Shown here piece by piece: positions 3,667 to 17,335 of a stretch of 64,000 nt of DNA (positions within the stretch are counted from its first letter, which is position 1; every line of letters starts with the position of its first letter). The translations under genes were made by a program, and so were the position numbers. Under the pieces are notes generated by a model that worked only from the letters and a program-made list of their open reading frames with translations, was not told where the DNA came from and ran no database searches. Location of the stretch: NCBI RefSeq assembly GCF_004634245.1, contig NZ_SJTF01000002.1:124001-188000 (forward strand). Direction: 5' to 3'. This stretch comes from Flavobacterium foetidum. Its GTDB lineage: Bacteria > Bacteroidota > Bacteroidia > Flavobacteriales > Flavobacteriaceae.

Positions 3667-5649
3667 TTAACTAATTGAGATTGCATCCAAATTAATAACA
3701 TTATCAACTCCAAACCATTTTTCAGCTGTACTTATAACATGCGAACTTGGACTTTGATAATAAACAGCTAACTTATTTTTTGCTCTTGTACAACAAACAT
3801 AAAAAATCTTTTGAGTTCTCGGCAGAGTATTATAAAATGACGTTAATTTAGACTTTGTTTTTGATTTTCCTTCAATGAGAATTTTTTCTTGATTTAAACT
3901 GTCAAAAACATATTCAAAATTGTATTTGTTCCAATTACCATTATCAAGAATTACAAGAACATTATCAAATTCATCCCCTTTGACTTTATGCTGAGTTGAA
4001 TAATTTGTTAAGCCTTCTAAATAATTGTAAACGTTTTGAAATTCTGAAAAACTAACTTTTTTTATTCTATTATAAGCATATGCTTTTTCTGTCTGAAACT
4101 TTAATAAATTATATGATTTCATACATATTCCCATTTCATGAGCCTCATTAATAACTTCTTCAATAGTCTTATTTCCAACATTAATAAGTTTATCGATATT
4201 TGTTTTCAAAACTTTCTTTTGTTCAATATTAAATATAAGTTTGTTTTCTTTTAAATATGCTTTGTAATCAGTTTCTTTTAAAAATTCTAAATATTTAGCA
4301 TCTTTATAATATTTTATATTGTTTTGAATTTTAAATAAATGTTTTAGTAGATGATCTCTTTTTGACCCTTTTTTAGCTTCGTCATCTTCATCTTGTTTCT
4401 TATCATCTGTTAAGATTTCACTGCTCAAATAAATTCTTCTAAAATTTACAAATTTATAATTTTTTGCCTCCGTAAAAAGTAAGGGATTTAAAGATATAAA
4501 TGAGCTTATTGGTCCAGTCATCGGTAATTTTACTTTTTCTATAACTTCACCAAAAGTATCATCATCTGATATGACAATATCTGTTGAGTTTTTCAGGTGC
4601 TTTACGATATTATTTTTATACTCAAGGATTTTATCATTGTTGTATATATCCATTAAAGTGGTGAACTGACCTTTTTTCGCATTTAAATTATGCGTAAGAT
4701 TTAACTCTTTAGTTTCTTTAAATTTTTTAAAATCCCATCCTAAATATGTTTTAACTTTCTCCAAATCATCATGTTTAGAATAAATAAATTTAATATCGCC
4801 TAATTTAACTTCTTCTTTAGAATTCATGTTAGGAGCATTTTCATCATTTGAATGAGTTTGTTGAATGCCATCAGTTCTTAACTTATTTGCTAATTCATAA
4901 ACTAATTTTGGATTTCTTCTATTTTGAATTTTCTTAACTTCAACTACTTTATTTTTTTTTAAATAAACATCTAAATTTCCTATACCATCATCATAAATAG
5001 ATTGCATTGCATCTCCAAAGAAACCAATGATATTTTGCTTTTTACTTTTATTTAAATGATCTAAAAATATTTCTACAACCTCTTTATGTGTATCTTGATA
5101 TTCATCTATGAAAATGAATTTAAATTTATCTTTTACTATATCGCATAACAGCTTACTGTTTTTAAACATCCTATTTGCAAGCAATAATAATTCATCATGT
5201 GAGATTATTCCTTGAGGTAATTGCACGCTTTGATATGAATACTTTATTTCTTCAATTCCGTCATAATATGTTTCACCAACTTTTTGATTGTTTATAAGTT
5301 CAATCTTATCAACCGCTTCATCATTTATTAATTCTATTAAGACTTTCTTCAGTTCTTTTTGATAGTTTTTAATATTATCCCATAAGAAATCATGTATAGT
5401 TGTTACATTTAAACTCTCATGATTAACTCTTTCTTCAATTTCTTTTACAGCTGAATTCGTATAAGTCATACATGCTACTTTGACAGTAGGGAATTCTTCA
5501 ATCACCTTTTTTATGACTTGAACCAAAGAATAGGTTTTTCCACTACCTGCTCCACCACTTAAAAGGAAATTATCTCCTTTTCTAATGAGTTCCATTATTA
5601 GCTGAAATTCATCTTTTCTTTCTACTTTTTCTAATCTTCCTTCAGCCAT
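3667..5649 (-). CDS. gajB: UvrD/Rep-like superfamily 1 helicase, Gabija GajB-like
   Basis: Superfamily 1A helicase motifs appear in order: Walker A GGAGSGKT (about residues 32-39), motif Ia MTYTNSAVKEI, Walker B DEYQDT (about 182-187), motif III GDAMQSIY, motif V HKVKGDEFDNV and motif VI VCCTRAK. The ATG at 5649 (MAEGRLEKV) fits better than an upstream in-frame start, and it overlaps the OLD-family gene by 19 bp, implying translational coupling. In Gabija, GajB partners the OLD-type nuclease GajA and helps activate it during phage infection. At about 660 residues it is longer than the best-known GajB (about 490). Function is inferred from the gene pair. Confidence 0.85.
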   Translation of the reverse strand: MAEGRLEKVERKDEFQLIMELIRKGDNFLLSGGAGSGKTYSLVQVIKKVIEEFPTVKVACMTYTNSAVKEIEERVNHESLNVTTIHDFLWDNIKNYQKELKKVLIELINDEAVDKIELINNQKVGETYYDGIEEIKYSYQSVQLPQGIISHDELLLLANRMFKNSKLLCDIVKDKFKFIFIDEYQDTHKEVVEIFLDHLNKSKKQNIIGFFGDAMQSIYDDGIGNLDVYLKKNKVVEVKKIQNRRNPKLVYELANKLRTDGIQQTHSNDENAPNMNSKEEVKLGDIKFIYSKHDDLEKVKTYLGWDFKKFKETKELNLTHNLNAKKGQFTTLMDIYNNDKILEYKNNIVKHLKNSTDIVISDDDTFGEVIEKVKLPMTGPISSFISLNPLLFTEAKNYKFVNFRRIYLSSEILTDDKKQDEDDEAKKGSKRDHLLKHLFKIQNNIKYYKDAKYLEFLKETDYKAYLKENKLIFNIEQKKVLKTNIDKLINVGNKTIEEVINEAHEMGICMKSYNLLKFQTEKAYAYNRIKKVSFSEFQNVYNYLEGLTNYSTQHKVKGDEFDNVLVILDNGNWNKYNFEYVFDSLNQEKILIEGKSKTKSKLTSFYNTLPRTQKIFYVCCTRAKNKLAVYYQSPSSHVISTAEKWFGVDNVINLDAISIS

Positions 5650-7847
5650 AACAATCCTTCTTTTATGTAGGCAGGGATTTGCCAATTACTATATTCATTT
5701 CCACTAACATCAGATGCACTATTTCGCAGGATTTCAATTGCTAAAGAAGGTTTACTATTCACCCCCTTTTCTGCTAATTGAAAAGGATCTTTGTCCATTC
5801 TAAATTTTTCAATCCATTTATTTGTTAATGATTCAAATTCATTACTTGGGTTAGATATAAAATCTTCATTTAATTTAAAAAATGCATCTTCAAAACTTCT
5901 AGCATGATATCCTAATTCTTCTGTTTGATATACAATTAACAATTTTCCTTTTTTGTCAACTTTCCACTCCTTATTTTTATCTTTTATTAGAGTTTTTGAT
6001 TCCAATAGAAGCTCTTTAAAATAACTTAAATCGTCACATGTTTTACCATAGAAAAACAACAATGAATGATTTGAGGTTTTATCTGAACTTGGCGCATTTG
6101 CAGGACACTTTTGAGTTTTAAATTCTGGCTCGCCATTAGCCTTTTTTTTAGGAGTAGTTTTATCTTTCTCCATTGCAGGAACTAGATAATAACTATCAAT
6201 ATCGGTTATTATTAAAGACTTCATTCCTATAAAATCTATAAACTTTTCAAAAATGTGAGAGTAAGCTCCAACTTCGACAATCGAAATATTTTGAGATAAT
6301 AATTTATTTTCAGGATACTCGCTATCAATTTTTTTCATCATAGCTGGTAATAAAATTCTTTCTGTATCACCTTCTATAAAAATTGCTTTATCTGTAAAAA
6401 ATAATTCAGCCCGATTAAGAGTCAAATACTGTTTTAAGAATTTGTAATTTTGCTGTTGACCTTTCTCGTTATATTCTTTTTCGAGATCCTTTAAATTTTT
6501 AGATATTACTTCATTTTTATTAAGCTTCTTAAGATATTTAATATCATCAAATTTACTTTCTGCAACTATATGAGATGAATGCGTACTCACAATATATTGC
6601 AACTCTCGTTGAATTATTTTCTCTTCACCTTCATCATTTTTTAGTTTCTTATTTATTCCTCCTTTTAATAATTCCTTTATGTTCTTAATAAAAACATATT
6701 GCATTTGAGGATGTGTATGTGCTTCTGGTTCTTCAATAAATAATAAATTAATATCTGATGGTTTTTCTAATTTTCCTCTTTTAAATTCTTCAACTTGAAT
6801 TTTGATTTCAAAAATTAAACTAATCAAATTCATATAACCTAAACCATTGTGATGTTCTGGCAACTTATCACTATTTTCATGTGAATACATTACGGTTGTA
6901 TTGCCTTCAAGTAATTCACGTTGCTGTAATGTTGAAAATATTTCAATATTTGTCTCATTTTCCTGAAGTCCTCCAAATTTTTTTATGTCAGATATAACTG
7001 CTTTAAAAATATCTGCATAAATTCCAGTTAAAGTCTTATCTGTACTTGATAACTCATCAGTGAATTTTTCAATCTTTTCTTTTTGTTCTTCACTTGTTTC
7101 TTCTCTTTTATAAATCTCAGAAGTTTGCTTAGATAAAGTTTTGTCTGTTTCTTTATTATTTACATCACGTTTAGCTTTAATAGATTTAAAATTTAAAATA
7201 TCTTTAAAATTTTCACTACCAACAAGAGTAGATTCAATTATTTCACTTTTAGTAAGATTCCATTCCAACGGTCCTTTATAAAGCTTAAAATATTCCGTGA
7301 AATTTTGTTTAAAAAATTCATTAAATCCACGTGGTGAATAGGTACTTATAACTTCTTCACTATCCTCTGATTTTATTTTCCCTTTCTCAAATTTTAACTT
7401 TTCTTTCTTTTCAAATTCAGAATATTCTTTTCTAAATTTTCTGTACCCATCAAAATTAATCACGAAATTAAATCCTAACACTACTTTATTATTATCTGGA
7501 TCTAAGTTCATCATTACATTGCATATATTTGATAAGTCATCGTTATCAAAATATTCAATTACTAATCTTAATTTTATTCCCAGATCTTTTCCTAATTCTT
7601 TAAATTCTTCTTCTGTTTTCTCAGCTGAATTTTTAATTAAATCCTCTAATCCATTTTTAAAAACGAGATTAAAATCCTCAGAAGTAAATTTACTTTTTTC
7701 AGAATTTATAAACTTTTCAAGTACTGACAAAATAGATGTTTTTCCAGTGTTATTTTTTCCTAAAACTAACGATAGTTCATCCTCTAAATCTAATTTAAAA
7801 TTTTGAAGAAGACGGTAATTATCAACCTGAATCTGTTTTATTTTCAT
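5631..7847 (-). CDS. gajA: OLD-family ATPase/TOPRIM endonuclease, Gabija GajA-like
   Basis: The N-terminal ABC-type ATPase has Walker A GKNNTGKTS (about residues 30-38), Walker B LLFIEEPE (about 368-375) and a switch STHSSH. It is followed by a TOPRIM domain with the catalytic glutamate in IEGDTE (about 492-496) and the acidic pair in ITDID. This ATPase-TOPRIM order defines OLD nucleases. In Gabija, GajA cuts DNA when nucleotide pools fall during infection. The ATG at 7847 (MKIKQIQVDNYRLL) is preferred to a TTG seven codons upstream. It is about 738 residues, longer than typical GajA (about 580), with extra charged helical sequence between the Walker motifs. The downstream overlapping helicase supports the assignment. 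Confidence 0.85.
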   Translation of the reverse strand: MKIKQIQVDNYRLLQNFKLDLEDELSLVLGKNNTGKTSILSVLEKFINSEKSKFTSEDFNLVFKNGLEDLIKNSAEKTEEEFKELGKDLGIKLRLVIEYFDNDDLSNICNVMMNLDPDNNKVVLGFNFVINFDGYRKFRKEYSEFEKKEKLKFEKGKIKSEDSEEVISTYSPRGFNEFFKQNFTEYFKLYKGPLEWNLTKSEIIESTLVGSENFKDILNFKSIKAKRDVNNKETDKTLSKQTSEIYKREETSEEQKEKIEKFTDELSSTDKTLTGIYADIFKAVISDIKKFGGLQENETNIEIFSTLQQRELLEGNTTVMYSHENSDKLPEHHNGLGYMNLISLIFEIKIQVEEFKRGKLEKPSDINLLFIEEPEAHTHPQMQYVFIKNIKELLKGGINKKLKNDEGEEKIIQRELQYIVSTHSSHIVAESKFDDIKYLKKLNKNEVISKNLKDLEKEYNEKGQQQNYKFLKQYLTLNRAELFFTDKAIFIEGDTERILLPAMMKKIDSEYPENKLLSQNISIVEVGAYSHIFEKFIDFIGMKSLIITDIDSYYLVPAMEKDKTTPKKKANGEPEFKTQKCPANAPSSDKTSNHSLLFFYGKTCDDLSYFKELLLESKTLIKDKNKEWKVDKKGKLLIVYQTEELGYHARSFEDAFFKLNEDFISNPSNEFESLTNKWIEKFRMDKDPFQLAEKGVNSKPSLAIEILRNSASDVSGNEYSNWQIPAYIKEGLLWLKED

Positions 7848-8054
7848 ATTCTTAATTGTTTTATTCAAACTTAGCTATATTAATTTTCTTAGCATTACGG
7901 TAATCCGTAAACAACAAATAATAGAATATTATTTCATTTTTAAATACATTAAGTTTTTTCTTCATAGCTGTTCAAATATATACAAACAAAAAGCCTTCAA
8001 ACCAAGTACAAACACCTGATTTAAAAGGCAACAAATAATCTTTATAATTAGGAC

Positions 8055-9060: not shown

Positions 9061-9075
9061 TTTAACAACAAAGTT

Positions 9076-9203
9076 TGTCATTTCGACGGAGGAGACTCGA
9101 GCGATAGCGAACAGGCGAAGCAAATCGCACTAGAAACTCCGCCAGAATGTCGCCAATCTTTGTCGAATCCCGCGTGTGATTTCTCCCTTCGGTCGAAATG
9201 ACA
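9076..9203. repeat. REP-like palindromic element, TGTCATTTCGA family, copy 3
   Basis: Ends TGTCATTTCGACGGAGGAG and GGTCGAAATGACA. Its interior matches copy 1 (GCGATAGCGAACAGGCGAAG). Confidence 0.8.
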
Positions 9204-9269
9204 AACTGTGCGGAAAAATCTTTGCGAACTTTGCGTAAATCTTAGCGAACTTTGCGGTTAAAATCACCA

Positions 9270-9376: not shown

Positions 9377-10798
9377 CTAGTCCTCACGGCTCCCATCATC
9401 TGCCATTCTAACCAGTTTCGGTGTAAACTTCGCCACAACATCTACCAAATCTTTCTGCGCTTCCATGACCTGATTGATATCTTTATACGCCATTGGGGCT
9501 TCGTCAAGACCTGCTCCGATAAGCGTAACGCCATGATGGTTCAGGATCGATTTCATTTCGGTTTGGGTGATATTTTTTATGGCTTGGGTTCTGCTCATTT
9601 GTCTTCCTGCTCCATGCGAAGCGGAGTTTATTGCATTTTCTTGGCCTTTTCCTCTCACCAAAAATCCTGGTGCGGTCATACTTCCCGGAATGATTCCCAT
9701 AACGCCTTTTCCGGCTGGAGTTGCACCTTTTCTATGTACAATCACTTCTTCGCCGTTCCAGGTTTCTTTCCAGGCGAAATTATGGTGGTTTTCGACTTTG
9801 GCTAAAATCGTCGCACCCAAAGCACGTTCCATTTTGTTATGGATAATCTCGTGACAAGCCGAAGCGTAATCTCCCGCCAAGTTCATCGCCATCCAGTATT
9901 CCTGACCTAGTTGTGAATTCATATCCAAATACGCCAAGTTTTTGGCTACTTCTGGAAGTCGGCATTCGTCTTTGGCAATTTTAGTATAATGTCCGGCAAT
10001 GGTTGCGCCCATTCCGCGTGAACCGGAATGCGTTAACAAAGCGACGTATTTTCCTTTTGGGATGTTTAAAACCGTATCGTCTTTGGCAAATTCCATGATT
10101 CCGAATTCCACAAAGTGATTTCCACCACCCGAAGATCCTAATTGCGACCACGCTTTATCTTTCAGATTCTTCACAAACGGATTCATATTGAAAGTTTCAT
10201 TCTCCAAAACCGCATGATCCGATTTGTACTGACCGTGAAATCCGTGACCTGCTCCAAAAATAGAATTCGCTATTAATTCTCTTTTGAATTTGGCTTCGTT
10301 TTCAAAGTAAAAATCTTCCGGAATATCGTAAACCGACAACGCCATTCTACACCCAATATCAACTCCAACACCATACGGAATAATGGCATTTTTGGTTGCT
10401 AAAACGCCGCCAATTGGTAATCCGTAACCTTGGTGCGCGTCTGGCATTAAAGCTCCGGCAACCGTAACAGGAAGTTTCATCGCCACTTCCATTTGTTTTC
10501 TGGCTCCGTCTTCGATATGATCCAATCCGTAAGCCGAATACGCATTCGGATTCTGATTTAAAGCAATGAAATCTTCTGGTTTTTCATTCGATTTTTCAAT
10601 TAAAGCCACAGCCAGTTTGCTGAACACTTTATCGTCTATATAATTCTCTGGGGTTTCTAAGACGTTTTTGTAATGAGCAATCATTTCGTCTCTTGTGAAT
10701 CCGTTTCTTTTGCTGTTTATTTTTAAGGCAATCCCAATTATTTTTCCTTCTGGGAATCCTAATTCTAATATATCTGTACCGTTTATTTGTGTTTTCAT
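9377..10798 (-). CDS. rtcB: RtcB family RNA ligase
   Basis: RtcB joins RNA 2',3'-cyclic phosphate or 3'-phosphate ends to 5'-OH ends using Mn2+ and GTP. At 473 aa, all expected motifs are present: VGVDIGCRM with metal ligands D147 and C150, GGGNHF with H228, THSGSRG with H257, the HHN motif at 338-340, and NSASHGAGR, whose H395 corresponds to the guanylated histidine. The active site therefore looks intact. An imperfect palindrome and a -7-like box lie 45-82 bp upstream of the ATG. The same element precedes the tRNA-like RNA units 4 kb away, and the RING/TerD-like gene is upstream on the same strand. No archease gene is visible in the window. Confidence 0.95.
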   Translation of the reverse strand: MKTQINGTDILELGFPEGKIIGIALKINSKRNGFTRDEMIAHYKNVLETPENYIDDKVFSKLAVALIEKSNEKPEDFIALNQNPNAYSAYGLDHIEDGARKQMEVAMKLPVTVAGALMPDAHQGYGLPIGGVLATKNAIIPYGVGVDIGCRMALSVYDIPEDFYFENEAKFKRELIANSIFGAGHGFHGQYKSDHAVLENETFNMNPFVKNLKDKAWSQLGSSGGGNHFVEFGIMEFAKDDTVLNIPKGKYVALLTHSGSRGMGATIAGHYTKIAKDECRLPEVAKNLAYLDMNSQLGQEYWMAMNLAGDYASACHEIIHNKMERALGATILAKVENHHNFAWKETWNGEEVIVHRKGATPAGKGVMGIIPGSMTAPGFLVRGKGQENAINSASHGAGRQMSRTQAIKNITQTEMKSILNHHGVTLIGAGLDEAPMAYKDINQVMEAQKDLVDVVAKFTPKLVRMADDGSRED

Positions 10799-10842
10799 TT
10801 TTTTGTTTTTTTTAGTGGCAAAGTGACAAAGTTTGATAGTGA

Positions 10843-10880
10843 CAAAGGTCTTTTACTACTGCGCAGTTATTTTGCGTAGA
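10843..10880 (-). promoter_or_regulatory. Palindromic operator and promoter-like element upstream of rtcB
   Basis: On the plus strand, an imperfect palindrome (10855-10880) with ACTA, TGCGCAGTTATTTTGCG and TAG segments follows CAAAGGTC, which reads GACCTTTG on the minus strand (compare TAnnTTTG). Three close relatives occur near 14,550, 14,860 and 14,950. The distance to the rtcB ATG would leave a leader of about 40 nt. Confidence 0.5.
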
Positions 10881-10967
10881 TTTTTTATTTCTATTTTTTT
10901 TTGCTCAGCGAAGAGATAGTTCTCGCAAAGTCGCTAAGGTTTTTCTTTAAGTATTAAACACAAAGTT

Positions 10968-11069
10968 TGTCATTTCGACGAAGGAGAAATCTTCGCGAGA
11001 AGCTCTACAAAGATTGGCTTTTCGTTGCGGAGTTACTTGTGGAGATTTCTCCCTTCGGTCGAAATGACA
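10968..11069. repeat. REP-like palindromic element, TGTCATTTCGA family, copy 4
   Basis: Ends TGTCATTTCGACGAAGGAG and CCCTTCGGTCGAAATGACA. It sits between rtcB and the SMI1-like gene. The rest of this gap (10799-11190) holds fragments of other dispersed repeats and no gene. Confidence 0.8.
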
Positions 11070-11190
11070 AACTGTGTGGTTAGTATAACTCGAAAGATTT
11101 TTTTCACGCAGATTCTGCAGATTCAAACAGATTTTCTACTCTTAGTTATATCCCGTTTCAATTACGTTGCTATGACACATATTATTAATT

Positions 11191-11736
11191 TTATCTAATC
11201 CTAGATATGAGTTCATATTTTAAATACTCTCTCAGGTTATTTCCAAACATAATAATGTCAGCTCCCCAAACAGAAATAACCGGCGATAGATATTTATCTT
11301 CAAAAACCACCAGAACACGGTGATGATACATTGGTATGAATCCTACTATTTTTGAAACATCAAATCCAGCTTCAGTAAGAACTAATTCTGCTTCAGCTTT
11401 GTTATCATTAAGTTCATCGATAATCCATCTTGATTTTTCATAATCCTCTGGGTATTGATAAAAGAAATTATCCTGATTAAATGTTATATCTGTTTCATCT
11501 TCTGGATTAATTGAAATTGTTGGTCTATCTAAATTAGAAAAAAGTGAAAGCATTTCTCTATATTCCCAAGGAAAATCAAATCCAAATAATATTTGTAACT
11601 GATCTATTTCTTTTCTGCTAATACCATTTACAAGTTTACTATTAGGTTGAATTTGAAATCCATAAATATCATTGTAAAGTTTTATTTTTTGAAACTTCTT
11701 TTCTATTTTATACTTAAGGTCTTTAATTGTAATCAT
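11191..11736 (-). CDS. SMI1/KNR4-like (SUKH superfamily) protein
   Basis: About 181 aa from the ATG at 11736 (MITIKDLKYKIEKKF); an in-frame ATG 33 bp upstream is also possible. SUKH-type features are a helical N-terminus, then FGFDFPWEYREMLSLFSN, which resembles the core 'P..Y...L...N' segment, and a C-terminal VWGADIIMFGNNLREYL. SUKH proteins are often immunity proteins to nuclease or deaminase toxins, and eukaryotic members act in cell-wall regulation. It begins 58 bp past the stop of the RING/TerD-like gene (25 bp if the upstream start is used), so the two are probably co-transcribed. No toxin gene is visible next to it. The family call is by pattern only. Confidence 0.7.
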   Translation of the reverse strand: MITIKDLKYKIEKKFQKIKLYNDIYGFQIQPNSKLVNGISRKEIDQLQILFGFDFPWEYREMLSLFSNLDRPTISINPEDETDITFNQDNFFYQYPEDYEKSRWIIDELNDNKAEAELVLTEAGFDVSKIVGFIPMYHHRVLVVFEDKYLSPVISVWGADIIMFGNNLREYLKYELISRIR

Positions 11737-11794
11737 CTTTCTATTTTTGAGATAAAACCACAAATTCAATTAAGAATCTGTGGTTTCTAATTTT

Positions 11795-14035
11795 TTAATC
11801 CACCAATAACTGCGTAACAACCGCTGGGTTCATCGCCCATTGCGCTGTGTAAACCTCATCAGCAATTTCGTTTTCGGTGATTGTTAAACCTTGAGCTTCT
11901 GCTTTAAGTTGCAACAAATTACCAATATTCAATTTGCTGTTTAGTTTTGCCAATAACGCCCGAACTCCTTTGAAGTCCAAACCACCTACAACCTGACCTC
12001 CGAAAGTCATCTCTAACCAAACGATTTCTCTTTTGGCTACATCCAACACGCCGAAAACCAAACCTTTAGCAACATTCTGAGTTACACGAACCTGATGATC
12101 TACACACGACGGATCGTATGCTACACCAGTTCTTTCCGAAATTTTCATCGGATATTTGCTGTTCATCCAACCTACGATTAAATTTGGCGTAATACTTCCG
12201 TTGCTGTACGCATTGCAAGTAAAAGTTACAAATTTAGCTTTGGCATTCGCCAATTCGTCGATGTTGATGTTGATATATTCGGCAGTTCCAATTTTATTCG
12301 GAATGCTTCGGATATCTCCACTATGCTGACAACCTGTAGTCGTCAATCGGCTGAAAGAACAAATATCTGAACGGTCTTCGTAAGCAATATGACAGCTTAA
12401 ATCCATATCCAAATGTTGTGCAGGAAGATCTTTACCCCACTGCATAAACAATCGCACTTCGTTTCCTTCAACTGGGAAACGTGTTCCCATTAAAGCAACT
12501 GGCAAATCCTGAACAGTATCGCTTCGATCTCCAATAGAAACCGGAATATTAAACAATTGTGGATCGATATAGATCGTTTTATTAGTATTTGGAACAGAAG
12601 CAAATCGTTTTTTCATAGCCAAAAGACATAATTTCTCGATTTGATTTTTCATTTCTTCCAACTGAAAATCTTCGTATAATCCCAACAACTGATTGGCACC
12701 AATTCGTTTGTTTGTTCCACCCAAAGGTTTCACGCTTCTCTGCATGTTTTTATCAAAATAATTTTGAGCATACATATTCAAAGTAAACACCAATCGAGCT
12801 GGAACTTTATCGATGATTTCTTCAAAATGAGCAATGGTTTCTTCTGCTCCGAACCAAAGCATATTCGAAAACAACGAACGAGCAAATAATCCTGGACGTT
12901 GTTTCAATAAGGCAAATGTCTTATCGGCATCAAATTTCAATCTTGAAGAATTCACTTTGCTTTGCCAAACGTCGTACACTTGGTTGTAGAAAACATCCAT
13001 TAAAAAGTTCAATTTCTCAAACCCTTTTCTTTTGCTGTATTCTGCCAAACGCAACGCACGGATAAAACGAACCCACATTCCTCTTTTTGGATGCATCGTT
13101 TCACACATCGCCTCAACGTCCATGTTCATATTGTTTAGCCAATTTGCCACCATTAAACATTCTTTTCGGGAATATTTAAGTTTTAAATCTTTTTGAGATG
13201 CAATTCTCGCCTGAACGCTTGTATCTAAAACATTATGGAAATGCTGTGCATTTTTTGATGTTCTTTTGATAATCGTTTTTGGCTCAATAATCTGAAGCAT
13301 TCCTGTGTTTTTGTACCACAAGTATCGCAAGATATCTGTTGGCGTTTTCAAAAACTGAGACGCTTGGTCTTCCTTACCATTTTCAATCAAAAGATCGATC
13401 ACCAGCATTAAAGTTTCTTTCATAGCCACTTCTCCTTTTGGTAAAGGCAAATAGTGCATAGCCAATTTTAAACTATCTACCTGAGTAGCATCTAAAGCGG
13501 TTTTGGATTGCAATAATGAGATATAGAAATCATTTAGGTCTTTTTCTGACCATAATTCCAATATTTTCAATTTGCTTCCTTGTCCGATATTTTCCAGTTT
13601 ACCGAATTCAAACGGAGTGCCGCAGAACGGGCAACCATTGTATCTTTCTAATGGGAAAGTATTATCTGGGATTGTATGGCCGCATTGTAAAGTTGTTCCT
13701 CTTTTTATATTTAAAACATTCCAAAAATATGTAACTACATGATCTAAAACAGATTCTCCTGTTGGAACATTCCATTCTTTCACTAATGGCGTCCAGTTTT
13801 TATCAGTTCCTAGAACTTCTCTCAAGACTTCTAAAACCTCGATTTTATATTTTGGGTTTACGTTGTTCAAAGCATGAAGCAATGACTCAGAAAAGGTAAA
13901 TCCAAGTTTTGAAACATTGGCTAACAAAACTGAAGTTGTTCCTGATAAATTTTTAGAGTCATTCGCAATCATTTCTGACGGAATGAAAATAGCATTTTGA
14001 CGTAAACTGATTTTTAATAATTCTTTTGTTTTCAT
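11795..14035 (-). CDS. RING-like zinc finger, helical-repeat and TerD-like protein (MXAN_6230/SCO0854-type)
   Basis: A 746-residue protein. An N-terminal helical region leads to a RING-like zinc site, C118-G-H120 and C135-PF-C138. A long helical-repeat region follows (about 150-490), with basic, aromatic-rich segments such as RFIRALRLAEYSKRKGF. The C-terminal third (about 500-690) is beta-rich and resembles TerD-like domains (DLSCHIAYEDRSD, GWMNSKY). The architecture matches what I know as the MXAN_6230/SCO0854 RING-domain family, whose biochemical role is not established. It lies directly downstream of the tRNA-like RNA cluster, with rtcB further downstream on the same strand. I infer that it binds or sorts RNA for the RtcB system, much as Ro60-type proteins do. 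Confidence 0.75.
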   Translation of the reverse strand: MKTKELLKISLRQNAIFIPSEMIANDSKNLSGTTSVLLANVSKLGFTFSESLLHALNNVNPKYKIEVLEVLREVLGTDKNWTPLVKEWNVPTGESVLDHVVTYFWNVLNIKRGTTLQCGHTIPDNTFPLERYNGCPFCGTPFEFGKLENIGQGSKLKILELWSEKDLNDFYISLLQSKTALDATQVDSLKLAMHYLPLPKGEVAMKETLMLVIDLLIENGKEDQASQFLKTPTDILRYLWYKNTGMLQIIEPKTIIKRTSKNAQHFHNVLDTSVQARIASQKDLKLKYSRKECLMVANWLNNMNMDVEAMCETMHPKRGMWVRFIRALRLAEYSKRKGFEKLNFLMDVFYNQVYDVWQSKVNSSRLKFDADKTFALLKQRPGLFARSLFSNMLWFGAEETIAHFEEIIDKVPARLVFTLNMYAQNYFDKNMQRSVKPLGGTNKRIGANQLLGLYEDFQLEEMKNQIEKLCLLAMKKRFASVPNTNKTIYIDPQLFNIPVSIGDRSDTVQDLPVALMGTRFPVEGNEVRLFMQWGKDLPAQHLDMDLSCHIAYEDRSDICSFSRLTTTGCQHSGDIRSIPNKIGTAEYININIDELANAKAKFVTFTCNAYSNGSITPNLIVGWMNSKYPMKISERTGVAYDPSCVDHQVRVTQNVAKGLVFGVLDVAKREIVWLEMTFGGQVVGGLDFKGVRALLAKLNSKLNIGNLLQLKAEAQGLTITENEIADEVYTAQWAMNPAVVTQLLVD

Positions 14036-14218
14036 TTTTTTAATTTTTAAAATTTAGATAATTGTGTTTCTGAGTTCTACCTAAAAGAGTTTTGAAGTAA
14101 GAAACACTTGACCTGAAATTTGAGTGTAATGAACTAGCTGATACAAATTAAGAGTTTGGTGGGTTTCCCCAAGAAGTAAGCTAATTTTGACCCTCGTTTT
14201 TTTATTAATGATGATTTT

Positions 14219-14269
14219 AAAACTTGCCGGACTCGAACCGGAAAAAACCAATTGTCTGAAGTAAGTTTC
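14219..14269 (-). ncRNA. Truncated tRNA-like fragment (acceptor-like stem plus T-arm)
   Basis: On the minus strand CCGG-TTCGAGT-CCGG has a T-arm shape with a classic T-loop. GAAACTT, part of motif copy 3, can pair with AAGTTTT after the T-arm to give a 7-bp acceptor-like stem. There is no D-arm and no recognisable anticodon arm. It lies immediately 3' of the complete tRNA-like unit. It may be a decayed third unit or a minihelix RNA. Confidence 0.5.
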
Positions 14270-14285
14270 AATTGACCATTAATTG

Positions 14286-14401
14286 TGGAGCAGGTGGGAT
14301 TCGAACCCACGACCCGGACATTAAAAGTGTAAGAAGTAAATTTTGATTGACCATTATTGATAATTTCAAAACTACCTGCTCTACCACTGAGCTACTGCCC
14401 C
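14286..14401 (-). ncRNA. tRNA-like gene A with a 44-nt insert in the anticodon stem
   Basis: Acceptor GGGGCAG/CTGCTCC, D-arm GCTC-AGTGGTA-GAGC, and T-arm GTGGG-TTCGAAT-CCCAC are all canonical. The anticodon arm is broken after its second base by 44 nt (14331-14374). Removing them gives GGACA-CTTTTAA-TGTCC, a perfect 5-bp stem and 7-nt loop with anticodon UUU (Lys), and a normal 72-nt tRNA body. The insert carries TAGTTTTGAAATTA and GGTCAATCAAAA, whose AGTTTTGA/TCAAAA segments can pair, and ends with the TTACTTC motif. CCA is not encoded. Whether it is spliced, cleaved, or used as a decoy cannot be told from sequence. Confidence 0.8.
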
Positions 14402-14408
14402 AATTATG

Positions 14409-14575
14409 ATTGAAAAATAAAAAGGTAATGGTGTAAGTGTGTACATTGGAAAGTGTTTTCGAAGTAACTCAAACTTGACCTGTTTTATTCTTTTTCTATT
14501 TCTATGAACGTTTGTTTTTATTTCTGAACAAAGATTTTAAAACTAGTGCGCAGTTATTTTGCGTAGTTAAAATAT
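14409..14575 (-). repeat. Leader repeat of tRNA-like unit A (near-identical to 14721-14885)
   Basis: About 165 bp almost identical to the leader of tRNA-like gene B. It includes GTGTGTACATTGGAAAGTG, motif copy 5, and the palindromic element at the far end. The leader plus tRNA-like gene forms a duplicated unit of about 300 bp. A third, shorter trace of the leader lies at 14905-14970. Confidence 0.85.
14529..14567 (-). promoter_or_regulatory. Palindromic operator and promoter-like element, tRNA-like unit A
   Basis: The palindrome at 14542-14567 contains ACTAGTGCGCAG and TTATTTTGCGTAGT. On the minus strand it is followed 5 nt later by AATCTTTG, one mismatch from TAnnTTTG. The same arrangement precedes rtcB and unit B, so co-regulation is likely. 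Transcription would start about 120 nt before the tRNA-like body. Confidence 0.5.
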
Positions 14576-14591
14576 CTTTTTTTATTATTTG

Positions 14592-14714
14592 TAAAGCAGG
14601 TGGGATTCGAACCCACAACCCTTGGTACCCTGAGTTGAAGTAAGTTTTGATTGACCTATGTGGGTAATTTCAAAACTACTATTACCAATGCTCTATCCAT
14701 TGAGCTACTGCTTC
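14592..14714 (-). ncRNA. tRNA-like gene B with an insert of about 48 nt in the anticodon arm
   Basis: Acceptor GAAGCAG/CTGCTTT (last pair G-U), D-arm GCTC-AATGGATA-GAGC and T-arm GTGGG-TTCGAAT-CCCAC are intact. The arms TTGGTA and TACCAA pair around the insertion. Removing 48 nt (14635-14682) leaves the 7-nt loop CTCAGGG on a 6-bp stem, which would read CAG; this is not a standard class I leucine tRNA, so the exact boundaries are uncertain. The insert contains TAGTTTTGAAATTA and GGTCAATCAAAAC followed by TTACTTC, nearly the same as in gene A. The segment GGTAAT/ATTACC offers a competing hairpin. Confidence 0.75.
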
Positions 14715-14720
14715 GTATAT

Positions 14721-14885
14721 AATTGAATAAAAAGGTAATCGTATAAGTGTGTACATTGGAAAGTGTTTTCGAAGTAACTTAAACTTGACCTGTTTTATTC
14801 TTTTCTATTTCTATGAACGTTTGTTTTTAATTCTGAACAAAGATTTTAAAACTAGTGCGCAGTTATTTTGCGTAGTAAAATTTTT
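14721..14885 (-). repeat. Leader repeat of tRNA-like unit B
   Basis: Second copy of the leader described at 14409-14575, differing at scattered positions and by single-base indels. It carries motif copy 7 and its own palindrome at 14851-14876. Confidence 0.85.
14838..14876 (-). promoter_or_regulatory. Palindromic operator and promoter-like element, tRNA-like unit B
   Basis: Palindrome 14851-14876 is identical to the unit A palindrome (ACTAGTGCGCAG and TTATTTTGCGTAGT). On the minus strand AATCTTTG follows at the same spacing. Confidence 0.5.
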
Positions 14886-14925
14886 GTTTCATTTTTTAGA
14901 AATGCTATCTGTTTTATTTCTTGAG

Positions 14926-14964
14926 CAAAGATTTCAAAGCCACTACGCAATTATTTTGCGCAGT
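14926..14964 (-). promoter_or_regulatory. Fourth copy of the palindromic element
   Basis: ACTACGCAA-TTATT-TTGCGCAGT is a near-perfect inverted repeat of 9-bp arms with one mismatch (14942-14964). It is followed on the minus strand by AATCTTTG. It lies upstream of both tRNA-like units and may drive the whole cluster. Confidence 0.5.
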
Positions 14965-15068
14965 AAAAAAGAAATTTTAATTTTGAGTAAATATTTTTTT
15001 ATTAAAACCGTGTAAGTCCCAATTGTACGGCATATTCGTAATTTTTGAATTATTGTAAAAAATTGAAA

Positions 15069-15285
15069 GTCCCAGCGGGACGAAATATTTATAGCTATTT
15101 TTCTATGCGCATCTAAAAGAGCCCGAGCGGGGCGAAATATTTATTGATTAAAACAAACCGAAGTGTCGCTCCGCTGGAGCTTTATTGTTGGGTTTTGCAA
15201 ATTGGCTATAAATGTTGAGCTCCTCTGGAGCTTTAAGATTAGATTTTATAATTTGCTATAAATATTTCGCTTCTCCGAAGCTCTG
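15069..15285. repeat. Array of five palindromes linked to GAAATATTTATAG
   Basis: GTCCCAGCGGGAC (15069), GCCCGAGCGGGGC (15121), GCTCCGCTGGAGC (15168), AGCTCCTCTGGAGCT (15218) and GCTTCTCCGAAGC (15269) are arranged with GAAATATTTATAGC tails, the last in the opposite orientation. This looks like a REP/BIME cluster of the kind mobilised by REP-associated transposases. No gene lies between the tRNA-like cluster and the HD gene. Confidence 0.7.
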
Positions 15286-15302
15286 TTCAAACACATATTA
15301 AT

Positions 15303-15917
15303 ATGGATTTAAAAAAAACCTACACCGATTTACTTCTAAACATTGGCTTTTCAGAAAATGAAATTCAGCAAAACTGGGCTGATTTAGAAAAGGCATATTC
15401 CAAAAAATCAAGACATTATCATAATCTCACGCATTTAAAAGAAATGATCGAGAGTTTTGAAGTCTATCGTGATAAACTTCAAAACCCAAACGAAATATTA
15501 TTTTCGATTTTCTATCATGATTTTGTGTATTCGGCATCCAAAAAAGATAACGAACTCAAAAGTGCTGAATATGCTTTGTCTGTTTTACCTAAAAATGTCA
15601 ATCTAAATAAACAATTAGTTTTTGATGCAATCTGTGCAACGCAACAGCATCAACACAATGCAATCGAAGATATTAATTGGTTAATCGATTTTGATTTGAA
15701 AATCCTTGCTAAAGATTGGGATGATTATAAAACCTATTTTGAACAAATCAGAAAAGAATATCGCATTTATCCTGATTTTCTATACAGGCCAGGACGTGCA
15801 AAAGCTTTGAAACATTTTTTGGAAAACGAGTTTATTTTTCAGACTGATGAGTTTAGGAGTTTGTATGAGGAAAAAGCTCGGGCTAATATTGAAAAAGAGA
15901 TTCTATTATTAACGTAA
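15303..15917 (+). CDS. HD-superfamily metal-dependent phosphohydrolase (COG4339-like)
   Basis: 204 aa, all helical. HD-type metal ligands are visible as H38-x-H40-x3-H44 in RHYHNLTHLKEM and H72-D73 in FYHDFVYS. A later motif with Tyr and Arg (YPDFLYRPGRAKAL) matches the predicted metal-dependent HD family COG4339. The substrate is unknown; HD enzymes often remove phosphates from nucleotides or RNA ends. It is transcribed away from the tRNA-like cluster and precedes the WYL regulator on the same strand, so a role in RNA-end processing beside RtcB is a reasonable inference. Confidence 0.85.
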   Translation: MDLKKTYTDLLLNIGFSENEIQQNWADLEKAYSKKSRHYHNLTHLKEMIESFEVYRDKLQNPNEILFSIFYHDFVYSASKKDNELKSAEYALSVLPKNVNLNKQLVFDAICATQQHQHNAIEDINWLIDFDLKILAKDWDDYKTYFEQIRKEYRIYPDFLYRPGRAKALKHFLENEFIFQTDEFRSLYEEKARANIEKEILLLT

Positions 15918-16022
15918 ATGCGTGAGGGATTGAAGTGGAGCTCTTTTTTAAGGCGATTTTTCTTCGCCTTAAAAAAAGCGGGAACGTAAAGCCCGACCCG
16001 CCTTTTTCGGCGGGGCACGCCC
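15918..16022. repeat. Dispersed repeat GCGTGAGGGATTGAAG to GGCGGGGCACGCCC
   Basis: The segment starts GCGTGAGGGATTGAAGTGG, contains the hairpin AAGGCGA-TTTTTC-TTCGCCTT, and ends with GACCCGCCTTTTTCGGCGGG and GGCACGCCC. I recognise this as a repeat type common in Flavobacterium genomes. Its hairpins may also terminate the HD gene transcript. Confidence 0.5.
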
Positions 16023-16104
16023 AAAATTTCAACGCAGAATTAATCTCGCAAAGACGCGAAGTCGCAAAGTTTTTTTGTTTAAAGTATTAATTAATCGTAC
16101 AGTT

Positions 16105-16206
16105 TGTCATTTCGACGTAAGGAGAAATCACACACGGAATTCCACAAAGATTGGCGACGTTCTGGACGGAGTTTCTAGTGTGATTTCTCCTTACGTCGAA
16201 ATGACA
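16105..16206. repeat. REP-like palindromic element, TGTCATTTCGA family, copy 5
   Basis: Ends TGTCATTTCGACGTAAGGAG and CTCCTTACGTCGAAATGACA are perfect inverted repeats, with AAATCACAC inside. It lies just before the WYL regulator. Confidence 0.8.
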
Positions 16207-16297
16207 AAAAATGAGAGAAATCATTCTAATCCTCATAATCTGTGGCTTAAAAATAAAAAACTTAGTGCCCTCGCGCCTTTGTGGCAAAACAAAAACA

Positions 16298-17335
16298 ATG
16301 TCACAAAACAAAAATGCCTTAATACGCTACAAAACCATAGACAAATGCCTTCAGAATAAATACAGGCAATGGACACTCGAAGATTTAATCGAAGAATGTT
16401 CTGAAGCTTTATTTGAATATGAAGGACGACAGAACCCCATCAGTAAGCGAACAATTCAAATGGATATTCAGCTGATGCGGAGCGAAAAACTCGGTTACAA
16501 TGCGCCGATCGTGGTTTACGATAAAAAGTTTTATAAATATGAAGACGAAGATTTTTCGATAACCGATATTCCGCTGACAGAAACCGATATGAATGTTTTG
16601 ACAGAAACGGTTTCGATGTTAAAGCAGTTTAAAGATTTCTCTTTATTTAATGATGTTTCGGATATTTTGCAACGATTGGAGGATAAAATCTACTCCGAGA
16701 AATCGCATACCAGACCTGTCATTTATCTGGATAAAAATGAGAAACTAAAAGGATTGCATTATCTGGATGAAATCTATCAGGCGATTATCAAAAAAATGGT
16801 TCTGATTATTACTTATAAATCTTTTAAATCTGCTGAGGAAACAAAATTCCATTTTCATCCTTTTATCTTAAAGGAGTTCAATAATCGCTGGTTTTTAATT
16901 GGAAAGAAAAAAGCGTCACAGCCCATTACCAATTTGGCTTTGGACAGAATCATTTCTATTGATTACGATTTTAATCATCCTTATTTAGAAGAAGATTTCG
17001 ATGCCGATAATTTTTATAAGGATGTCATTGGCGTTACGGTCAATTCAGGGATGAATCCAAGACGCATTGAAATATGGGTTGACGCTTCAAATGCGCCCTA
17101 CGTACTCACAAAACCTTTGCATACTTCTCAGCGCATTATTAAGGAAAATGAAGACGGAAGCATAATCGTGCATTTGTTTGTGATACCAAATTATGAAATG
17201 GAAAGGCTGTTATTGGGTTTTGGAAGCTGTGTGGAAATTTTAAGACCCGAAAGTCTGAGAAATCGTATGAAAAAGATACTTCACGACGCCATTTCGCGCT
17301 ATGAACCAAAAGAATCAACTGAACAAAATGCATAA
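16298..17335 (+). CDS. WYL domain-containing transcriptional regulator
   Basis: The ATG at 16298 (MSQNKNALIRYKTID) is preferred because the upstream in-frame start reads through repeat sequence. The protein is about 345 aa, with an N-terminal winged helix-turn-helix (about 1-70, including SKRTIQMDIQLMRS), a WYL domain centred on the FHFHPFILKEFNNRWFLIGK segment, and a C-terminal WCX-like part. WYL proteins sense ligands or nucleic acids and often control defence or RNA-repair genes. It is the only regulator beside the rtcB/tRNA-like cluster and so the best candidate to bind the shared palindrome. That link is inference. Confidence 0.88.
   Translation: MSQNKNALIRYKTIDKCLQNKYRQWTLEDLIEECSEALFEYEGRQNPISKRTIQMDIQLMRSEKLGYNAPIVVYDKKFYKYEDEDFSITDIPLTETDMNVLTETVSMLKQFKDFSLFNDVSDILQRLEDKIYSEKSHTRPVIYLDKNEKLKGLHYLDEIYQAIIKKMVLIITYKSFKSAEETKFHFHPFILKEFNNRWFLIGKKKASQPITNLALDRIISIDYDFNHPYLEEDFDADNFYKDVIGVTVNSGMNPRRIEIWVDASNAPYVLTKPLHTSQRIIKENEDGSIIVHLFVIPNYEMERLLLGFGSCVEILRPESLRNRMKKILHDAISRYEPKESTEQNA

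What the first reader, a model, noticed from the sequence alone, without database searches (positions are those of the whole stretch)
9377..17335. Candidate RNA-repair locus with its own tRNA-like RNAs
RtcB, a RING/helical-repeat/TerD-like protein, tRNA-like genes with interrupted anticodon arms, an HD phosphohydrolase and a WYL regulator cluster here. The Salmonella rsr-yrlBA-rtcBA operon is a known precedent for RtcB with a ring-shaped RNA-binding protein and tRNA-like RNAs. Here the protein and RNA parts are different. I infer that the RNAs are substrates, guides or decoys handled by the RING protein and RtcB. I do not know of a published description of this arrangement.
Basis: partly seen in the sequence, partly recalled or inferred. 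Interest (0 to 1): 0.93.

Follow-up and report, generated by a model that had tools for sequence, protein, structure and literature searches.

The report
Docking hairpins inside bacterial tRNA genes
Flavobacterium and its relatives carry a gene, for a protein predicted to be ring-shaped, that is preceded by two to seven conserved hairpin elements, some of them inside tRNA genes, and it often shares a DNA control sequence with the gene of an RNA ligase, so the parts likely form a kit that handles cut tRNAs.

Summary
The tRNA-like genes are real and belong to a larger RNA array. On the minus strand upstream of the RING/TerD gene lie seven exact copies of GGTCAA-N7-TTACTTC, with none elsewhere in 5.1 Mb. 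Each is one strand of a covarying hairpin (P1: 7 of 7 pairs with compensatory changes). Five copies are free hairpins; two sit inside the anticodon arms of tRNA genes. All 80 homologous loci examined carry the motif (at most one mismatch), and a covariance model hits exactly the 5 of 299 family genomes that hold the protein. A palindromic operator is exact at five places: three in or before the array, one before rtcB, one upstream of a slipin gene with a YrlA-like RNA. Nearby ligases are RtcB (42 loci) or Rnl1/Pnkp-type (22), never both. The protein's helical domain matches Ro60/TROVE best at fold level; no sequence profile does. Best reading: a Ro60/Y-RNA-like RNA-repair particle with tRNA-bearing RNAs; function is untested. 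Diverged hairpins of the same plan lie beside distant relatives in a Rhodococcus phage and on a Niallia plasmid.

The parts
11795..14035 (-). RING / helical-repeat / TerD protein, 746 aa; predicted Ro60-like ring
9377..10798 (-). RtcB RNA ligase, 473 aa
   Evidence: PF01139 280.6 bits; operator in front of it at 10860
11191..11769 (-). SUKH/SMI1-like ORF, 192 aa; accessory, not conserved
   Evidence: below cut-off (15 of 25.4 bits); tblastn relative in 11 of 80 loci
14057..14113 (-). hairpin element nearest the start codon
   Evidence: R1 62.0 bits
14125..14192 (-). hairpin element
   Evidence: R1 28.2 bits
14210..14277 (-). hairpin element with a T-arm-like apical stem-loop (CCGGTTCGAGTCCGG)
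   Evidence: R1 34.4 bits; sequence
14286..14401 (-). tRNA-Lys(UUU)-like gene with a 44-nt insert (14331-14374) after nt 28
   Evidence: RF00005 50.9 bits; junction
14333..14372 (-). permuted hairpin element inside that tRNA
14424..14480 (-). hairpin element
   Evidence: R1 47.7 bits
14592..14714 (-). second interrupted tRNA-like gene (Pro-type loop; junction ambiguous)
   Evidence: RF00005 54.1 bits
14637..14676 (-). permuted hairpin element inside that tRNA
14734..14790 (-). hairpin element, farthest upstream
   Evidence: R1 56.1 bits
10860..10878 (.). operator-like palindrome TRCGCA-N7-TGCGYA before rtcB
14547..14565 (.). operator-like palindrome within the array, between a hairpin and a tRNA-like gene
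14856..14874 (.). operator-like palindrome before the array
14944..14962 (.). operator-like palindrome before the array
16211..17335 (+). WYL-domain regulator, candidate reader of the operator
   Evidence: WYL/WCX; relative in 59 of 80 loci
15303..15917 (+).
   Evidence: no Pfam match; in 57 of 80 loci, 0 of the 23 without the window's synteny

Best explanation
A protein predicted to be Ro60-like and ring-shaped likely binds a set of conserved hairpin RNAs encoded just upstream of its gene, several of them inside tRNA genes, and together with RtcB, whose gene bears the same operator sequence, would repair cut tRNAs. Shown by sequence: the element is GGU-CAA-[P1, 7 bp]-UUACUUC ... [P1']-N-AUU-AYC. 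Its GGU/AYC end points away from the tRNA module and its UUACUUC end faces it, in free hairpins (module = loop or T-arm) and, with the chain connected the other way round, inside tRNA anticodon arms. Shown: protein and RNA co-occur, and the same operator sequence stands at the array and before the ligase. Inferred: the hairpin is the docking handle of the protein, as the Ro-binding stem is in Y RNAs; the WYL regulator reads the operator when RNA is damaged; the tRNA module (mostly Lys-UUU or Arg-UCU loops on a near-constant body) serves as bait or adaptor that brings tRNA-cutting toxins, or cut tRNA ends, to the ring, where RtcB (elsewhere Pnkp/Rnl1/Hen1) seals them.
Confidence: 0.5

Rival explanations
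1. The inserts are true introns: the hairpin is cut out of the tRNA by an unknown nuclease and RtcB (or Pnkp/Rnl1) joins the exons, giving functional tRNAs under stress. This would be protein-dependent tRNA splicing in bacteria.
For: Leaving out the insert gives canonical anticodon arms: 71 of 83 parses with 5 pairs, U33 and a purine at 37; 64 of 83 cut after nt 28, and 62 of those 64 inserts are 43-46 nt. In 61 of those 64 the 3' exon begins 2 nt after UUACUUC (most are closely related Flavobacterium). RtcB acts in tRNA splicing in archaea and eukaryotes (PMC10272220, passages).
Against: The other rows cut after nt 28 or 29 have 0-3 nt there, so the distance is not strictly fixed; the parser picks the best junction, which favours canonical arms. 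A near-constant body carries many anticodons. Intact Lys-UUU and Arg-UCU genes exist in the same genome. Free hairpins with no exons carry the same element, within 130 nt of the start in 78 of 83 leaders. No endonuclease was found among the neighbour clusters that I identified (not every cluster was identified).
Confidence: 0.2
2. The hairpins are a cis-acting leader: the protein binds its own mRNA to control its synthesis, and the tRNA bodies are RNA-processing signals that cut the transcript.
For: In the 83 leaders the elements were found upstream of the gene (looked only there, over whole loci, nearly all motifs lie there), and a hairpin lies within 130 nt of the start in 78 of 83.
Against: In phage Weasels2 and on the Niallia plasmid the hairpins lie downstream of the gene. 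Two to seven copies with tRNA and T-arm modules exceed what a leader needs.
Confidence: 0.2
3. It is an anti-phage or toxin-sensing defence locus in which cleaved bait triggers a response, rather than a repair system.
For: Patchy distribution (5 of 299 family genomes); a Gabija pair (GajA, GajB) lies next to TatD and rtcB; relatives occur in phages.
Against: No effector was recognised beside the array; the recurrent partners identified are repair enzymes; no PADLOC model matches the RING/TerD protein or RtcB.
Confidence: 0.1

Closest known systems
Salmonella rsr-yrlBA-rtcBA RNA-repair operon (Hughes 2020, PMC7790460, passages read)
   Same: RtcB, an RNA-binding ring (here predicted), tRNA-mimicking RNAs and a damage-linked regulator (here inferred); [quoted passage not shown]
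   Different: Here TerD stands where Ro proteins have vWA; RNAs are up to seven and include full tRNA bodies with anticodon loops; a WYL gene stands nearby instead of RtcR; the ligase is swappable.
Ro60 / Rsr (TROVE) proteins
   Same: Helical-repeat fold by structure comparison; RNA partner encoded next to the gene.
   Different: No TROVE sequence match; RING-like zinc motif before and TerD after the repeats.
YrlA bacterial Y RNA (Rfam RF02553)
   Same: Open-end stem with a conserved internal loop, tRNA-like module at the far end; by eye some modules run T-arm, hairpin, D-loop-like as in YrlA.
   Different: No YrlA match in the array; different conserved letters; also inserted into tRNA anticodon arms.
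Band-7/slipin with its tRNA-like RNA (reported by Burroughs and Aravind 2016; recalled, paper not held)
   Same: A slipin gene with a YrlA-like RNA, outside the window, carries the same operator.
   Different: Different protein; no R1 hairpin there.
Anabaena TrcR regulon (PMC10272220, passages read)
   Same: Co-represses a tRNA operon, rtcB and a slipin gene, relieved under translational stress.
   Different: Different regulator; no hairpin-bearing tRNAs described in the passages read.
MXAN_6230/SCO0854 RING family (NF041916)
   Same: Distant relative, 121 bits.
   Different: Far below its cut-off of 600; its function was not looked up.

Membership tests
Ro60/TROVE | TROVE domain by sequence profile | tested here: not met
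   No PF05731 at E 0.1; hhalign against 13 Bacteroidota TROVE proteins, probability 0.1 (shallow profiles, Neff 2-3)
Ro60/TROVE | ring of helical repeats | tested here: inconclusive
Ro60/TROVE | C-terminal vWA domain | tested here: not met
Ro60/TROVE | binds Y RNA or misfolded RNA | not testable with these tools
   needs binding assay
Y RNA / YrlA (RF02553) | covariance-model match | tested here: not met
   No YrlA match in window 13900-15300 or in five whole loci
Y RNA / YrlA (RF02553) | stem with conserved internal loop plus tRNA-like module | tested here: met
   similarity of layout judged by eye, not of letters
rsr-yrl-rtcBA type RNA-repair operon | RtcB in the regulon | tested here: met
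   regulon membership by operator only
rsr-yrl-rtcBA type RNA-repair operon | RtcA and RtcR | not tested
   no family search made for RtcA or RtcR; rtcR is annotated near a 25%-identical Variovorax relative
TerD family | TerD fold | tested here: met
Group I or other self-splicing intron in tRNA | known ribozyme core in the insert | tested here: not met
   Rfam at E 0.5 over 13900-15300 gives no intron family; insert of 44 nt
Archaeal/eukaryal tRNA intron | bulge-helix-bulge and splicing endonuclease | not tested
   no search made

The most novel reading that the evidence does not exclude
The array is an inherited panel of bait tRNAs: one near-constant tRNA body with interchangeable anticodon loops, held through a docking hairpin grafted into the anticodon arm by a ring protein of an unrecognised Ro60-like superfamily, so that tRNA-cutting toxins hit bait which the linked ligase reseals; the same docking hairpin has spread into phages and other phyla.
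Probability: 0.3. Interest if true: 0.95.

Novelty: new variant of a known kind. Interest (0 to 1): 0.86.

Why it matters
If right, Ro60/Y-RNA-like particles are far wider than TROVE sequence searches show, and bacteria and phages share a modular RNA handle that can be grafted onto tRNAs. It gives a testable answer to what tRNA-like RNAs do in RNA-repair operons, an open question in the Salmonella system, and it shows bacterial tRNA genes interrupted by a conserved element that matches no self-splicing intron family in Rfam.

Tried and rejected
HD gene as a partner: rejected; 57 of 80 loci, none of the 23 without the window's synteny.

Fixed sequence motif with random N7: rejected; N7 pairs.

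TROVE by sequence: no match. Foldseek gave TerD only for the whole model and nothing clear for the helical domain; Ro60 rows came from the second aligner. Families not listed by these tools are not excluded.

PDB by sequence: nothing useful. Viral contigs by peptide patterns: none; phage records by tblastn gave distant relatives.

Hairpins beside distant relatives: the first scan found four candidates in Weasels2. A looser scan gave hits whose reversed-core controls were often similar, so only the strict scan is counted: 9 hits in 5 of 16 loci, against a mean of 0.58 hits for 195 permuted-core runs, highest 8 hits and 6 loci. That scan misses the Segatella locus, which has R1 hits. Repeated hairpins seen by eye in Mycobacterium phage WXIN and Ruegeria phage RpAliso are not counted.

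In print? The listings of nine library searches showed no paper on this element by title or start of abstract; passages were read in four papers. The closest review (Burroughs and Aravind 2016) is not held, so a prior mention there cannot be excluded.

Full report
WHAT IS THERE. On the minus strand, upstream of the 746-aa RING/TerD gene (11795-14035), lies a 0.75-kb array (14057-14790). A 13-letter motif with a fixed gap, GGTCAA-N7-TTACTTC, occurs in it seven times without mismatch; the rest of the 5.1-Mb genome has no exact copy. Two copies lie inside Rfam tRNA matches, which ARAGORN does not call.

THE ELEMENT. In related loci N7 changes freely but pairs with a second 7-mer that is followed by NATTAYC. 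With 394 motifs in 83 leaders (80 loci, the window, and L012 and L013), a strict rule pairs 331, against 84-109 when N7s are swapped among motifs; a looser rule without control assigns 392 of 394: 290 with the partner downstream (free hairpins) and 102 upstream (inserted form). On 37 free hairpins the named structure has 96.8% of cells paired, all seven P1 pairs changed on both sides, and a covariation score of 0.789 against 0.246 in shuffles and at most 0.20 when slid. On 17 inserted forms the score is 0.544 against 0.239 (0.27 at the nearest slide), six of seven P1 pairs changed on both sides, a number of pairs that 23 of 500 shuffles also reach. In both forms the GGU/AYC end points away from, and UUACUUC towards, the cargo: a loop, a T-arm-like stem, or a tRNA.

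THE tRNA CARGO. Parsing gave 89 rows, of which 83 (75 loci) have a tRNA body and an anticodon arm of at least 4 pairs once the insert is left out; 6 rows were dropped. 64 of 83 are cut after nt 28, and 62 of those 64 inserts are 43-46 nt. Best-junction anticodons are 42 UUU, 19 UCU and 22 others; 11 rows at the edge of the search grid (cut after nt 35) are unreliable, including most loop-type Pro readings. The choice of best junction favours canonical arms. The acceptor shows GCAG at nt 4-7 in 73 of 83, over 13 of the 18 parsed anticodons, while none of 30 acceptors of intact tRNAs in the same genome ends in CAG. Intact Lys-UUU, Arg-UCU and Pro-UGG genes exist there. A near-constant body with changing anticodon is what bait would look like; it does not prove bait. 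48 of 83 leaders have a T-loop-like sequence in a hairpin apex.

COUPLING OF RNA AND PROTEIN. Of 106 relatives found, the best 80 were kept; 79 have an exact motif upstream and all 80 one with at most one mismatch. The protein occurs in 5 of 299 family genomes; model R1, run with the stricter filters used for many genomes, hits the same five and none of the other 294. Three of the five contributed to R1, and in G033 the hit lies on another contig than the gene. Two plasmid relatives (Hymenobacter 60%, Segatella 51% identical) also have R1 hits and an interrupted tRNA match.

REGULON. The palindrome TRCGCA-N7-TGCGYA is exact at five places in the genome: 10860 before rtcB, 14547, 14856 and 14944 in or before the array, and one outside the window, upstream of a slipin (Band_7) gene preceded by a YrlA-like RNA (39.9 bits, below the Rfam cut-off of 69). 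73 of 80 loci have an exact site within 1.2 kb upstream of the RING gene, 76 with one mismatch. It precedes RtcB in 35 of 42, T4-type Rnl1 in 16 of 21 and Hen1 in 14 of 14 (family names rest on one or two scanned members of each cluster). RtcB (42 loci) and Rnl1/Pnkp-ligase (22 loci) never occur together; 16 of 80 have neither in the fetched flanks, some short. A WYL gene is in 59 of 80 loci, 7 of the 23 without the window's synteny; that it reads the operator is inferred. RtcB is present in 37 of 38 genomes tested among loci that are distant or lack it nearby, and in 5 of 5 protein-bearing against 65 of 299 family genomes (hypergeometric P 0.0004, ignoring kinship).

WIDER FAMILY. At 21-25% identity, relatives lie near rtcR on a Variovorax plasmid, on a Niallia plasmid, and amid tRNAs and RtcB in Rhodococcus phage Weasels2; with the Weasels2 protein as query, relatives appear beside tRNA genes in Ruegeria and Rhodobacter phages. 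A strict scan finds hairpins of the same plan in 5 of 16 such loci (9 hits; 195 permuted-core controls average 0.58 hits, highest 8 hits and 6 loci): Hymenobacter, Weasels2, an unclassified gut phage, a metagenomic phage and Niallia. In Weasels2 one hairpin carries, by eye, a T-arm, a second hairpin and a D-arm-like segment, the YrlA order.

MECHANISM. Shown: structure, coupling, shared operator. Inferred: docking of the hairpin on the ring, damage sensing by WYL, bait or adaptor role of tRNA cargo, sealing by the ligase. [quoted passage not shown] The intron reading stays open: in 61 of the 64 rows cut after nt 28 the 3' exon starts 2 nt after UUACUUC, a regularity that also fits splicing. 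The cis-leader reading stays open too.

Noticed in passing
window 3667-7868: Gabija defence pair downstream of TatD and rtcB: GajA (E 4e-277) and GajB (E 3e-216) in PADLOC.
   Followed up: yes
window 15907-16002 +: Flavo-1 RNA (RF01705, 51.1 bits, cut-off 42), overlapping the end of the 204-aa ORF.
   Followed up: no
window ~9070-9205, ~10975-11070, ~16100-16205: Repeated inverted GTCATTTCGAC...GTCGAAATGAC elements, REP-like (read).
   Followed up: no
L170:3998-5871 (outside the window): Slipin gene with a YrlA-like RNA and the same operator.
   Followed up: partly
L063, L068, L069, L073 within 6 kb upstream of the RING gene: Ordinary tRNA groups of 6-11 genes; with one tRNA in L075, 5 of 25 loci scanned, recalling spare-tRNA operons.
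   Followed up: no
L137 and L012 (genome G033): By eye, the array looks split by an insertion sequence within a hairpin element, the two parts lying on different contigs.
   Followed up: no
L078 and L079 leaders; by eye also L069 and L073: A second hairpin element nested in the loop of the insert in a tRNA; inserts of 123 nt in L078 and L079.
   Followed up: no
L176:446-567: An annotated tRNA-Gln of 122 nt in Ruegeria phage RpAliso, possibly another interrupted tRNA.
   Followed up: no
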